From Pyrinomonadaceae bacterium (GTDB lineage Bacteria > Acidobacteriota > Blastocatellia > Pyrinomonadales > Pyrinomonadaceae): 64,000 bases of DNA. Shown here piece after piece: positions 15,664 through 43,503 of the stretch. The position numbers were made by a program, and so were the translations under genes. How positions within the stretch are numbered: the first letter of the stretch is position 1; each line of letters begins with the position of its first letter. The notes beneath the pieces were generated by a model. That model did not search any database. It had not been told where the DNA came from and was given only the letters and a program-made list of their open reading frames with translations. The DNA is taken from positions 868,001 through 932,000 of the forward strand of contig DASUNM010000027.1 of NCBI GenBank assembly GCA_036277115.1. Reading direction: 5' to 3'.

Positions 15664-15927
15664 CTAGAACTCGATCGGCGGATTTCTGATAATGAAACCC
15701 ATCGTTCCGTCGTAGACTTTCGGCGTCAGCTTTAGAGTTGGGAAGCGAGTTTGCACTTCCTTTGTAATGCGGCGCGCCGCGGCGTTGGCGTCAAAATCTT
15801 TTCCGGGCGGAACCAGGCGACCCATGATGATGCCGCCGGGAACCTTGCGGAAATCCGCGGCCTCGATGGCCCGGTCGATGGCTTTCGCCAAGTCACCGAT
15901 CTTAATTGTTGAAGCTTTCGTTACCAC
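15664..15927 (-). CDS. Conserved-looking 87-residue protein of unknown function
   Basis: Starts at a GTG with an excellent ribosome site (ggaggtg, 8 bases before). The sequence has an amphipathic N-terminal helix (KIGDLAKAIDRAIEAA), then GGIIMGRLVPPG, a second helix and a short strand pair ending PPIEF; it looks like a compact alpha/beta domain. No family recognised and no catalytic motif. It is the first gene of a two-gene unit with the Cys-rich protein, so the two may act together. Confidence 0.68.
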   Translation of the reverse strand: MVTKASTIKIGDLAKAIDRAIEAADFRKVPGGIIMGRLVPPGKDFDANAAARRITKEVQTRFPTLKLTPKVYDGTMGFIIRNPPIEF

Positions 15928-16035
15928 AGGAGTTACACCTCCAAGTAAGGTTTAGCCCTGAATAGTTTTGGGTTGGGCTGTTTGGACGCGCGCACTTTAT
16001 GCCCTTTGTGGCCACGTGTCAATCGAAAAGTCTAC

Positions 16036-17322
16036 TTAGGATGAGGCTATCCGGTCGGTAGCAAAATACTTGCGCAGAGCTTCAGGGATCAGGATTGAGC
16101 CATCTTTGTGCTGATAATTCTCCAATATCGCAATCCACGTTCGTCCCACTGCCAATCCCGAGCCGTTGAGCGTGTGCACAAATTCCGGTTTGGCCCCACC
16201 TGCGCGCCGAAACCGTATGTTCGCGCGCCGTGCCTGAAACGCTTCGTAATTCGAACAGGAAGAGATTTCACGGAAGGCATTCTGTGAAGGCAGCCACACC
16301 TCGATGTCGTACGTCTTCGCGCTGCCAAAGCCGAGGTCGCCGGACGCGAGCGCCACGACACGATAGTGAATGCCAAGCTTCTGCAAAATGACCTCAGCGT
16401 CATGCGTCAGCGATTCGAGCTCATCGTAGGAATTCTCAGGCAGCGAATACTTCACTAGCTCAACTTTCTCGAATTGATGCTGGCGGATGATTCCGCGTGT
16501 ATCTTTGCCATAGCTGCCGGCCTCCGATCGAAAGCAGGGCGTGTATGCGGCCCACTTCTTCGGCAAATCTGACGCGTCGAGAATCTCTTCTCGGTGATAA
16601 TTCGTGACCGGCACTTCCGCCGTCGGCACCAGATAGAAACCGCGTTCGTCTTCCAGCTTGAAAAGGTCCTGTTCGAACTTCGGCAGCTGACCGGTGCCGA
16701 ACAGCGCGTCGCGGTTGACGATGAACGGCGGCAGGGTTTCCCTATAGCCATGCTCAGTCGTGTGCAGGTCGAGCATGAAATCGATCAGCGCGCGTTCCAG
16801 GCGCGCGCCGGCGCCGTTCAGGATCGCGAACCGCGCGCCGGCAATCTTAGTCGCGCGCTCCAGGTCGAGGATGCCGAGCGCCGTCCCCAAATCGACGTGG
16901 TCCTTCGGCTCAAAATCGAATTCAGGTTTAGTGCCCCAGCGGCGAATCTCGACATTTGCTGATTCATCTTTACCGACCGGCACGGATTCGTGCGGGATGT
17001 TCGGCAGCGTCGAGAGCAGCTCGCGCATTCGCGCTTCGGCTTGATCGCGGGCGTCATCAAGTTTCGCGATCCGCTCTTTCAGTTCATTGACCTGTTTGCG
17101 GCGCGCATGCGCTTCGTCCCGCTTGCCGTCCTTCATCATCGCGCCGATCTCGCGGCTGGCCGTGTTGCGCTCAGCGTTCAACTGGTCTGACTCAGAAATC
17201 ACACGACGGCGACCCGCATCAGCCGCGGCGAAATCGTCGAGCGCGGCCGTCGCCATCTCGCGCTTCGCCAACGCCGCGCGCACCGCGTCGAGGTTCTCTC
17301 TTACATAATTCAGATCAAGCAT
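16036..17322 (-). CDS. serS: Serine--tRNA ligase
   Basis: A class II aminoacyl-tRNA synthetase of 428 residues. The N-terminal long coiled-coil arm (about residues 25-105) grips the tRNA. Motif 2 is [20 protein letters not shown] and motif 3 is [17 protein letters not shown]; the serine-site TAEVPVTN is also present. Canonical start [10 protein letters not shown]. The first 8 bases overlap the end of the nucleotidyltransferase gene, implying translational coupling on one transcript. Confidence 0.97.
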
Positions 17323-39959: not shown

Positions 39960-40982
39960 TCACTTCCAACTAATCACGACTCGCTGAATCGACGGCGGCA
40001 GTTCGTGCATTTCGCTGCGCGCGAAGCCGGTGTTGCGAAACATCTGATCAAGTTCTGCGAAAGTGTAAGCATCACCTGAAGGCGTGCCGCCAAGCATTTG
40101 CATGGCAAAGGCCGCGGCTTGCGGCGGAGTAACCCGGTCGGCGTTGGGTATGAATTCCAGTGTCACTGCGCGTCCACCGTCTTTCAGCGCCCCGTTTACC
40201 TTCCGGAGCAGTATCTCGCAGGTCGCCGCGTCGAAGTGATGCAGAAAATTCGTCAGCAGTACGACGTCGTAATCAGTTCCATAATCAACATCGAACGCGC
40301 TGCCCGGGTTCGTCTGGAAACGTTCAGCCACACCGGCAGCTTCCGCATTCTGTTTCGCAAGTTCCAGCACGTTCGGCCAATCAACCGCGGTGACTTCAAT
40401 CTGCGGATTTTGTTTTGCGAAAGCGATGCCGTACAAACCATGGCCCGCGGCAATATCCAGCACGCGCAAGTTCTGGTCTTTCGCTGGATCGACAAGTTGC
40501 GCCAACAACTCTGCGGGCATGGCCATCATCGGCGCCATCGCGCGCGCAAATTCAACCCACACCGGATGCTCAGGCTCGAGCGATTCTGCTGAGCCGGTCG
40601 AGCCGCCTTTCCGCACTGATTCAGTTAGGTTGTCGAAATTGCCTTTGATGTGAGGCGACAGCATGAAATCACTGACCGTGCCCATGTACGCGGGCGAGCG
40701 CTGGTCGAGAAAAACCGCGGAGTCAAGCGTCAATCCATAGCGCCCATCCTCCTTCGTCAGGAATCCCATGATCGTCAGATAGTCGCACAGGACACGCGTG
40801 CCCTTTTCGGATGCGGCGCAGCGATCGGCAATTTCCTTCGCGGTGGTTTTGCCTTCAGCGATAGCGGTGAAGACTTCGAGATCGATGCCGGCTTTCAGCG
40901 CCTGTGTTCGCTGGTACGCGTTAAGCGTGTCGAATAGTAATGCCGGTGTTGGTTGCTTTCCTGCCTGTGCTTCTGGGGCCAT
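39960..40982 (-). CDS. SAM-dependent O-methyltransferase-like protein
   Basis: 340 residues. The N-terminal winged-helix dimerisation region (ALKAGIDLEVFTAIAEGKTTAKEIADRCAASEKGTRVLCDYL) and Rossmann domain (LRVLDIAAGHGLYGIAFA, then VTAVDWPNV, VVLLTNFLHHFD) fit class I methyltransferases of the AdoMet O-methyltransferase type, used on small phenolic or quinone-like substrates. Possible alternatives are CrtF-type or antibiotic-tailoring enzymes. Convergent with dut (11 bp). The upstream 41021-41146 is repeat DNA. Confidence 0.87.
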   Translation of the reverse strand: MAPEAQAGKQPTPALLFDTLNAYQRTQALKAGIDLEVFTAIAEGKTTAKEIADRCAASEKGTRVLCDYLTIMGFLTKEDGRYGLTLDSAVFLDQRSPAYMGTVSDFMLSPHIKGNFDNLTESVRKGGSTGSAESLEPEHPVWVEFARAMAPMMAMPAELLAQLVDPAKDQNLRVLDIAAGHGLYGIAFAKQNPQIEVTAVDWPNVLELAKQNAEAAGVAERFQTNPGSAFDVDYGTDYDVVLLTNFLHHFDAATCEILLRKVNGALKDGGRAVTLEFIPNADRVTPPQAAAFAMQMLGGTPSGDAYTFAELDQMFRNTGFARSEMHELPPSIQRVVISWK

Positions 40983-41020
40983 TGATTTACCCTTTCGATG
41001 GAAATGAAGGGCGAAAGCCT

Positions 41021-41146
41021 ACTAAGTCCAAAGTCCAATGTCCAACGTCCAAAGTCCCCGGCTGGAATCAGAACTCAGACGTTGGACCTTGGACCTTGGA
41101 CTTTGGACTTTGGACTTTGGAGGTTGGACCTTGGACGTTGGACTGT
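41021..41146. repeat. TCCAAAGTCC / TTGGACTTTGG repeat block
   Basis: AAGTCCAAAGTCCAATGTCC on one side and runs of GGACCTTGGACTTTGGACTT on the other form a long inverted array of ten-base steps between two minus-strand genes. One of several independent short-step palindrome families in this window. Confidence 0.8.
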
Positions 41147-41149
41147 GGA

Positions 41150-41806
41150 TTAATTCAGTTTCAGCGAAACCGGTTGGCCAAGTCCCTCGATCGAAAGCGT
41201 TACGCCCTGTGGGGACGCGACTGGTTCTTTCTGCGGAGAGCGAAAGATTATTAATCCCTGTCGCTGGCGCTCTGAATGGGTGAGCGGAGCTTTCAAATCG
41301 AAATCATAGGCGCGAAACTCTTTTTCGAATGTCTTTCGTGAATTCGGATTGTAAGCGAAAACTGCATTCGCTTTCAGGATGTGCGAGACGGCTTGTTTTC
41401 CCGAAATCAACTTCCATTCGTTACCTGACGCGTCGTGCAACTTGAACTTCAGTTTCTTCAGGACCAAATCCTCGCCCCCATTGTGCCTGGCCTCCAGACG
41501 CACCGGCAGCAATCCCGCCAGTTGCAGATTCGCTTCGAACAGCTCCTGGGTTTCTTCGTCGGTAAGCAGCGGAGCCGCGCGGAAAGTAACCGAACCGACG
41601 TCTGCCGTAGCCGCGGTCGCAGGCATGCGCGCGAGGGCCGCCGGGGGCTTAACTTTATAAAGACTTGTACTACACGCCATCGCAGCTAACGAAATCAACA
41701 CAGCCAAGAGTGTCGTGAGAAAACGCAGCGGGCTCGAACTTTCACGATAGTTAATTCGGTAGTTCACTTGCGGAGAATGTTGCCTTGGCAGATCCGTTGA
41801 AGTCAA
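41150..41806 (-). CDS. Probable lipoprotein of unknown function
   Basis: About 200 residues after the leader. The N-terminal hydrophobic run FLTTLLAVLISLAAMAC ends in a lipobox cysteine, so a lipid-anchored envelope protein is likely. The mature part is beta-rich (VGSVTFRAAPLLTDEETQELFEANL, LVLKKLKFKLHDASGNEW, LIIFRSPQKEP) and not recognised. The start is unclear: the longest frame begins at a TTG at 41806 directly after an intrinsic terminator, and a GTG at 41767 is also possible. Neither has a visible ribosome site. The gene sits downstream of the RNA-like element at 41813-41930, which may control it. Confidence 0.65.
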   Translation of the reverse strand: MTSTDLPRQHSPQVNYRINYRESSSPLRFLTTLLAVLISLAAMACSTSLYKVKPPAALARMPATAATADVGSVTFRAAPLLTDEETQELFEANLQLAGLLPVRLEARHNGGEDLVLKKLKFKLHDASGNEWKLISGKQAVSHILKANAVFAYNPNSRKTFEKEFRAYDFDLKAPLTHSERQRQGLIIFRSPQKEPVASPQGVTLSIEGLGQPVSLKLN

Positions 41807-41812
41807 TTGGAC

Positions 41813-41845
41813 AAAAAAATGCGGCGGGACTTTTGAGCCCGCCGC
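41813..41845 (-). terminator. Rho-independent terminator
   Basis: Perfect 8-bp GCGGCGGG / CCCGCCGC stem (41821-41828 and 41838-41845) with a 9-base loop and seven U residues on the minus strand. It lies directly before the lipoprotein frame. Confidence 0.85.
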
Positions 41846-41930
41846 CGTGTGGGTGCCTACGGAGACATCAGCGACTGCTGTTTGGCGGCTTGTGCCGCCG
41901 GCTCCCCGGTTCGAAGGGTGAGGACTAACG
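41813..41930 (-). ncRNA. Candidate small RNA or regulatory leader with own promoter and terminator
   Basis: A transcript of about 118 nt is predicted between a consensus sigma70 promoter (41937-41965) and the terminator (41813-41845). Inside, a GGCGGC-ACAA-GCCGCC hairpin (41884-41899) is obvious. A CCGCCG run at 41931-41936, at or just upstream of the start site, is complementary to the terminator's 5' arm, which could allow an antiterminator alternative. No ORF or ribosome site lies within. It is either a free small RNA or a leader that attenuates the lipoprotein gene. I could not match it to 6S, SRP, tmRNA, RNase P or a riboswitch. Confidence 0.55.
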
Positions 41931-41936
41931 CGGCGG

Positions 41937-41965
41937 ACTTTAAGCTATGCAAGCTTCGCTGTCAA
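41937..41965 (-). promoter_or_regulatory. Sigma70-type promoter for the RNA-like element
   Basis: Minus strand: -35 TTGACA (41960-41965, perfect consensus), 17-base spacer, -10 TAAAGT (41937-41942). The start site would fall near 41930. It lies 80 bp downstream of the TPR-HTH gene's stop, so it is a fresh promoter for what follows. Confidence 0.7.
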
Positions 41966-42045: not shown

Positions 42046-43503
42046 TCATTTGTGCTTCTTGATTACCGTCTTGCGCCGCACGCGAATGGGCGCCCTCGCG
42101 CTGAGCAGACTCCGGTGCCGATGATTGATGATGTAGCACAGGCCCTGGTGCGTTAACCCGAGGGTGCGAGCCGCGCGCGTGACGCTGCCGTTGGCTTCTT
42201 CCAACGCCTGGCGAATCAGCGTGCTCTCAAACTGACGCACTTCTTCTTCAAAGGTAGCGAGGGTCCGGGCTGGTTGCGCGAGGAGAGACGGTTCGGACCC
42301 GATAAATCGAGCACACGCCCGCAAGCGAGTTAGAGTTTCGCGCCCGATGTCTTCACCCAGCTTCCGATCGGCTTCAGAATATGCGCGGCTGATTTCGTCG
42401 GCGGGAAGATACTCGTGGAGTTCTTCGACCAACGTTAAGAGCGCGCGTCCCGCCGATTCCGGATCACCGGCGGTCTCGGCCACCTCGACGGCGCGGCGAA
42501 GAGTCGCCATCGCCGCTTGATGCCTTTGTTGCCGGGCTTGCGCTACTCCCAGCGTCTGCAAGCTTTCGACCAGCAGTGATTGCTCTCCGCCGCGTTCAAG
42601 CACCGACACAGATGCCCGCGCGAGTTTCTCCGCTTCCGCGTATCGCTGCTGGGCCACGTAGACCCGGGCGCGCGTTTCATCCACTTGCGCGGCGGTGCCC
42701 ACGTCGTCGAGATCGGCAAAAGTGCGCCGTGCATCTTCAAGAGTCTCAAGCGCTTCATCGTACCGGCCTAACTCAAGCATGATGACGCCGAGGTTGTTTT
42801 GCGCGCGCGCGAAGTAGCGACGATGGTTTGCCTTCTCAAAATGTACGCGCGCGGCTGCATGATCAAGCAAGGCGCGGTCGAGGTTTTCGATTCCGCCCCT
42901 CCGTCTCATCACGATGCCACGCTGCATGTAGTAACACCCGAGCGCTGCGTCGTCTTTTACGTTATCCAAAATAGCGGCGGCGCGATCGAGCAACGTCAGC
43001 GCGTCATTCAGATGATTTGTCGAGACCTCGACGATCGTGCTGTTGACCAGAATGCGAAGGGTATTGACTGGATTCTCCGCTTTCGACAGCGCCGCCTGAA
43101 ACAAAACGCGGGCTTCGTCCATCGCGCCCTCGCGCCAACAGCAAACCGCCAGGTTCGTCTGTGCCTCCGCGACCTTTTCACTCAGTTCAAGTTCTTCGAA
43201 ACTTTTTATGCTCTCGCTGATTAAGTCCTTCGCGAATTGTTGCGCGCCGGGAACTTGACGCGAACTACCGAGCCAACCCGCCAGCGCGCCGGCGCGCAGC
43301 ACCAGTTCCGCCCCTTCTGCTTTCGGCAGGCCCGCTGTGTGCGGCCGTTCACCGATGCCGGGCCAGAACGCGGCAATCGCATCAAAGGCCGCCTCGTACT
43401 CGCCGATGTTTTGCAACTCCTTCGCGGCTCGACATGCGACCTCAACGCTCCTTTCCGAATTCGCCACGCTGCCGTCCGGCTTCAACAGAGTTTCAGACCC
43501 CAT
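42046..43503 (-). CDS. TPR-repeat protein with C-terminal Fis-type HTH
   Basis: 485 residues. Residues about 90-370 form a helical superstructure of tetratricopeptide-like repeats (YFARAQNNLGVIMLELGRYDEALETLEDA is one clear unit). Residues about 426-470 carry a Fis-family DNA-binding helix-turn-helix (LIRQALEEANGSVTRAARTLGLTHQGL) and a basic tail. The likely role is a transcription factor with a peptide- or protein-sensing TPR domain. There is no receiver or AAA+ domain, so it is not a sigma54 activator. It is divergent from the radical-SAM gene across a 605-bp gap. Confidence 0.82.
   Translation of the reverse strand: MGSETLLKPDGSVANSERSVEVACRAAKELQNIGEYEAAFDAIAAFWPGIGERPHTAGLPKAEGAELVLRAGALAGWLGSSRQVPGAQQFAKDLISESIKSFEELELSEKVAEAQTNLAVCCWREGAMDEARVLFQAALSKAENPVNTLRILVNSTIVEVSTNHLNDALTLLDRAAAILDNVKDDAALGCYYMQRGIVMRRRGGIENLDRALLDHAAARVHFEKANHRRYFARAQNNLGVIMLELGRYDEALETLEDARRTFADLDDVGTAAQVDETRARVYVAQQRYAEAEKLARASVSVLERGGEQSLLVESLQTLGVAQARQQRHQAAMATLRRAVEVAETAGDPESAGRALLTLVEELHEYLPADEISRAYSEADRKLGEDIGRETLTRLRACARFIGSEPSLLAQPARTLATFEEEVRQFESTLIRQALEEANGSVTRAARTLGLTHQGLCYIINHRHRSLLSARAPIRVRRKTVIKKHK

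What the first reader, a model, noticed from the sequence alone, without database searches (positions are those of the whole stretch)
41813..41965. Orphan RNA-like unit with consensus promoter and terminator
TTGACA-17-TAAAGT and a perfect GC stem with U7 mark a 118-nt transcript on the minus strand. It contains a clear GGCGGC-ACAA-GCCGCC hairpin. A CCGCCG segment at the transcript's 5' boundary can pair with the terminator arm, hinting at attenuation of the lipoprotein behind it. I match it to no known family.
Basis: partly seen in the sequence, partly recalled or inferred. Interest (0 to 1): 0.72.

Follow-up and report, generated by a model that had tools for sequence, protein, structure and literature searches.

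The report
Orphan small-RNA gene in a soil acidobacterium
A short stretch between two genes of a Blastocatellia (acidobacterial) genome has its own start and stop signals for transcription and no protein in it, so it is most likely a small regulatory RNA gene known so far from this one species; it is a plausible but otherwise ordinary find, and it does not look like a switch for the neighbouring lipoprotein gene.

Summary
On the minus strand there is TTGACA-17-TAAAGT (41965-41937), a GGCGGC-ACAA-GCCGCC hairpin (41899-41884) and an intrinsic terminator (8 all-GC pairs, loop of 9, A, T7; 41845-41813). This predicts a transcript of about 118 nt with no usable ORF. In 2.56 Mb of the same genome (53%), a strict same-strand promoter-to-terminator search finds only three units: two tRNA genes and this one. 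Shuffled sequence gave 2 units in 12 runs of 1.76 Mb. An independent non-coding RNA gene is therefore the best reading.

The attenuation idea is not supported. The CCGCCG segment lies between the -10 box and the expected start, so it should not be transcribed. In 12 orthologues the lipoprotein gene has a TTGACA box 35-39 nt before its start codon. The window has TTGACT at 39 nt, just after the terminator, so the gene probably has its own promoter. A syntenic relative lacks the RNA unit.

There is no Rfam family, and no homologue in 119 family or 396 phylum genomes (weak test: syntenic intergenic DNA has diverged to background). The body without terminator folds no better than shuffles. Hfq is encoded. 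A trans-acting base-pairing sRNA is the most likely mechanism, but it is inferred; no target stood out.

The parts
41937..41965 (-). Promoter of the RNA: TTGACA (41965-41960), 17-nt spacer, TAAAGT (41942-41937)
   Evidence: The same TTGACA-17-TAAAGT followed by a GC-rich stretch precedes a short ORF at 15664-15927.
41931..41936 (-).
   Evidence: Position; folds with different start sites.
41813..41930 (-). Predicted non-coding transcript, about 118 nt (start 41931-41929, end in the T run)
   Evidence: the only ATG gives a 3-residue frame; no ORF of 60 aa or more overlaps it on either strand.
41884..41899 (-). Hairpin GGCGGC-ACAA-GCCGCC
41869..41880 (-). Small hairpin CAGC-AGTC-GCTG
   Evidence: predicted.
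41813..41845 (-). Intrinsic terminator: 8 all-GC pairs, loop of 9, A, T7
   Evidence: terminators of the same form occur in relatives.
41777..41806 (-). Probable own promoter of the lipoprotein gene: TTGACT (41806-41801), 18 nt, CAACAT (41782-41777)
   Evidence: 39 nt before the GTG start; orthologues have TTGACA 35-39 nt before their start codons.
41150..41767 (-). Lipoprotein gene (GTG start, lipobox near AMACS); no Pfam or NCBIfam family
   Evidence: orthologues in 25 other genomes of the family.
42046..43503 (-). Upstream gene: TPR repeats plus a C-terminal Fis-type HTH (HTH_8)
   Evidence: orthologue at 60% identity in G002 in the same arrangement.

Best explanation
41930-41813 on the minus strand is an independent non-coding RNA gene of about 118 nt. 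A housekeeping-type promoter starts it and an intrinsic terminator ends it (shown as sequence signals, transcription not shown). It ends just upstream of the -35 box of the lipoprotein gene's own promoter, so the terminator also keeps the two units apart. The RNA most likely acts in trans, by base pairing of its unpaired parts (the 5' end and the linker 41883-41846) with mRNAs, possibly with Hfq bound to the U-rich tail. That last step is inferred.
For: Promoter and terminator are close to ideal and correctly ordered and spaced. In 2.56 Mb of the same genome the only other units of this build are two tRNA genes, so the architecture marks stable RNA genes in this organism. There is no ORF. The lipoprotein gene has its own promoter at the conserved position. 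An Hfq gene is present in this genome and in the six other genomes of the genus.
Against: No expression data. No homologue in relatives, so no covariation could be tested. The body without the terminator is not more stably folded than shuffles (z -0.64). No mRNA target exceeds what shuffled versions of the RNA give. One shuffle in six gives one promoter-terminator unit by chance, although under looser criteria than this unit meets.
Confidence: 0.65

Rival explanations
1. A cis-acting attenuator: the transcript is the leader of the lipoprotein mRNA and the terminator is a regulated premature one.
For: The terminator ends 45 nt before the GTG start and is co-directional. Attenuators in Acidobacteria are said to be largely without assigned function (PMC2965389).
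Against: The proposed antiterminator strand lies upstream of the expected start and loses by about 6 kcal/mol even if included. The lipoprotein gene's own promoter sits between terminator and gene at the spacing found in orthologues. Twelve orthologues have only 35-39 nt between -35 box and start codon, with no room for a leader, and syntenic G002 has none. Linkage, named in PMC2965389 as the main clue for a cis element, is not kept.
Confidence: 0.12
2. The terminator is only the 3' end of the TPR-Fis gene's mRNA, perhaps releasing a 3'UTR-derived RNA, and the promoter-like site is fortuitous.
For: The upstream gene is co-directional, and no other terminator is seen between its stop codon and the promoter.
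Against: It would need a 3' UTR of about 230 nt that happens to contain a 10-of-12 promoter with 17-nt spacing, in a sequence where such sites occur at 0.05 per 64 kb of shuffled sequence. Syntenic G002 has no such terminator.
Confidence: 0.13
3. A chance or decaying arrangement without a functional RNA, for example a transcribed but neutral spacer unit.
For: It is restricted to one genome, and the body has no excess structure.
Against: Near-ideal promoter and terminator together. The only other such units in 2.56 Mb are tRNA genes.
Confidence: 0.1

Closest known systems
Trans-acting bacterial small RNAs with own promoter and intrinsic terminator (general class, often Hfq-dependent)
   Same: Length of about 118 nt, own sigma70-type promoter, single-stranded stretches, GC terminator followed by a T7 tract, no ORF, intergenic; Hfq is encoded in the genome.
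   Different: No detectable relative in any described family; target and expression unknown; phylum with only 4 distinct sRNAs annotated in a 2022 compilation (PMC9029176).
Xoo2 (RF02241), suhB/mmgR (RF00519), CC0196 (RF01519)
   Same: Weak covariance-model similarity, driven by a GC-rich terminator hairpin.
   Different: Bit scores 19.2, 17.4 and 13.4 against cut-offs of 45, 41 and 35; not members.
Terminator-attenuated mRNA leaders
   Same: Terminator before a co-directional gene.
   Different: The downstream gene has its own promoter after the terminator; no plausible antiterminator; no linkage in relatives.

Membership tests
Intrinsically terminated intergenic sRNA (class) | Own promoter in intergenic DNA | tested here: met
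   TTGACA-17-TAAAGT; not experimentally shown.
Intrinsically terminated intergenic sRNA (class) | Intrinsic terminator ending a transcript of 50-250 nt | tested here: met
Intrinsically terminated intergenic sRNA (class) | Non-coding | tested here: met
   Only a 3-residue frame from ATG; no ORF of 60 aa or more overlaps it.
Intrinsically terminated intergenic sRNA (class) | Expressed as a discrete RNA | not testable with these tools
   Needs RNA-seq, Northern blot or RACE.
Intrinsically terminated intergenic sRNA (class) | Conserved sequence or structure in relatives | tested here: inconclusive
   None found in 119 family and 396 phylum genomes, but the syntenic G002 intergenic region is at background similarity throughout, so the relatives are too distant.
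Intrinsically terminated intergenic sRNA (class) | Base-pairing target | tested here: inconclusive
   Best duplexes with 1883 initiation regions are not better than those of shuffled RNA.
Attenuator leader of the lipoprotein gene | Terminator and antiterminator mutually exclusive within the transcript | tested here: not met
   The antiterminator strand is outside the expected transcript; the alternative fold is 6 to 10 kcal/mol worse.
Attenuator leader of the lipoprotein gene | Linked to the downstream gene across relatives | tested here: not met
   About half of the orthologues have a promoter box 35-39 nt before the start codon, leaving no room for a leader; no leader with a terminator was seen upstream of the others that were read.
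Any Rfam 15 family (including 6S, SRP RNA, RNase P, riboswitches) | Score above the family's gathering cut-off | tested here: not met
   None in the window; best weak match 19.2 bits against 45.

The most novel reading that the evidence does not exclude
A lineage-specific, Hfq-associated regulatory RNA of Blastocatellia, gained recently between a TPR-Fis regulator and a lipoprotein gene, with a regulatory role of its own (for example control of envelope or lipoprotein genes in trans).
Probability: 0.3. Interest if true: 0.45.

Novelty: new member of a known kind. Interest (0 to 1): 0.28.

Why it matters
Small RNAs are nearly unmapped in Acidobacteriota (4 distinct annotated sRNAs in a 2022 compilation, PMC9029176), although these bacteria are abundant in soil and the seven genomes of this genus encode Hfq. 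The unit also shows that a strict promoter-plus-terminator search in this genome returns almost only RNA genes, which offers a simple way to list candidates there. The individual RNA is not surprising.

Tried and rejected
Rfam at gathering and permissive thresholds: nothing above cut-off. blastn of the unit in 60 relatives, 119 family and 396 phylum genomes: only matches of 18-33 nt; those read in context are chance matches, several inside coding sequence, or similar terminators. A covariance model built from this single sequence: outside the window, the hits that were read are other genes' terminators or unrelated sequence. Phages, plasmids and viral contigs: no match. Own genome: single copy. 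Target search: no target above shuffles. Pairing with the neighbours' start regions: lipoprotein -29.5 kcal/mol with 6 of 100 shuffles as good, TPR-Fis 29 of 100; not convincing. Small ORF: rejected.

Full report
What is there. On the minus strand, between a TPR-repeat/Fis-HTH gene (42046-43503) and a lipoprotein gene (41150-41767), the sequence reads TTGACA-17-TAAAGT (41965-41937), about 118 nt, and a terminator GCGGCGGG-CUCAAAAGU-CCCGCCGC-A-U7 (41845-41813). The generic terminator scan missed the terminator because it limits loops to 8. The exact stem-spacer pattern is absent from 100 shuffles, and TTGACA-N17-TANNNT is expected 0.05 times in the window. The other such site in the window (16022-15994, again TAAAGT followed by a GC-rich stretch) precedes a short ORF at 15927-15664, which suggests this is a regular promoter form of the organism.

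Is the pair more than chance? I took 2.56 Mb of the same genome (contig C27 complete, 1.2 Mb of C23, 0.4 Mb of C21) and searched both strands for TTGAC-N16-18-TANNNT followed on the same strand, 40-260 nt after the start site, by a perfect stem of 6 or more pairs with a T run. Eighty-five terminators and 129 promoter-like sites give three units: tRNA-Lys, tRNA-Leu and this one (tRNA-Lys also by Rfam). Twelve first-order Markov shuffles of 1.76 Mb gave two units in all. In this genome the architecture therefore marks RNA genes. The candidate has no tRNA, no ORF and no Rfam family.

Structure. The full transcript folds at z -3.1, but the excess comes from the terminator (z -4.2 alone); without it z is -0.64. 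The GGCGGC-ACAA-GCCGCC hairpin is a confident local fold (z -2.1 with its flank). No claim of a conserved structured RNA can be made.

Attenuation. The CCGCCG segment occupies 41936-41931, immediately after the -10 box. With a start 6-8 nt after the -10 box (41931-41929) it is not transcribed. If a start at 41936 is forced, the alternative fold reaches -44.0 kcal/mol against -50.2 with the terminator; for realistic starts the difference is 8 to 10 kcal/mol. The lipoprotein has orthologues in 25 other genomes of the family. In eleven of these, and in a further contig (L047), TTGACA lies 35-39 nt before the start codon. In the window, TTGACT (41806) lies 39 nt before the GTG start, with CAACAT at an 18-nt spacing; orthologues have similarly poor -10 boxes (CAAGAT, AGAGAT). 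The gene thus very probably has its own promoter, whose -35 box begins 7 nt after the T run. In G002, the one relative with the same two neighbours (TPR-Fis orthologue at 60% identity), that promoter lies within a 206-nt spacer and there is no RNA unit. The published rule of thumb that linkage argues for a cis element (PMC2965389) points away from attenuation here.

Conservation. No homologue was found by blastn in 119 genomes of the family or 396 of the phylum, nor with a single-sequence covariance model: the hits outside the window that were read in context are terminators of the same form, such as CGGCGGGTTGAAAAGCCCGCCGC-T7 in G018, or unrelated sequence. The test is weak. The whole intergenic region of syntenic G002 is at background similarity, and protein identities within the genus are near 60-68%, so a short RNA could have diverged beyond recognition. 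The statement that fits is: known from one species, conservation untested at suitable distance.

Mechanism. The most likely reading is an independent small RNA acting by base pairing in trans. Hfq is encoded in this genome and in the six other genomes of the genus, and the transcript ends in a U-rich tail of the kind Hfq binds (general knowledge). Neither the 5' segment nor the linker finds a target among 1883 initiation regions beyond what shuffles of the RNA give; for the start region of the adjacent lipoprotein, 6 of 100 shuffles do as well, which is at most a lead. I put the independent RNA gene at about 0.65 and regard the trans mechanism as inference.

Verdict. It is a new member of a known kind (intergenic sRNA genes) in a phylum where few are annotated (4 in the table of PMC9029176).

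Noticed in passing
15994-16022 (-) and 15664-15927 (-): A second TTGACA-17-TAAAGT promoter with a GC-rich discriminator lies between a seryl-tRNA synthetase-like gene (16036-17322) and an 87-aa ORF without any NCBIfam match.
   Followed up: partly
G000 contig C21, about 304534-308734 (locus L184): A dense array of some 20 tRNA genes in about 4 kb, several repeating anticodons found elsewhere in the genome; could be a mobile-element or phage-type tRNA array.
   Followed up: no
41020-41140: Degenerate short tandem repeat of the GTCCAAAGT / TTGGACTTT type between the O-methyltransferase gene (39960-40982) and the lipoprotein gene, in both orientations (L015).
   Followed up: no
42046-43503 (-): The TPR plus Fis-type HTH protein belongs to a family with several copies per genome in this bacterial family (up to 9 matches in one genome); looks like a lineage-expanded regulator family.
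   Followed up: partly
L021, L023, L025, L032-L035, L038: The lipoprotein promoters of the family share an unusual -10 region (GTGAGAGATT or GCAAGAT after TTGACA) with only 35-39 nt from -35 box to start codon, so very short leaders.
   Followed up: partly
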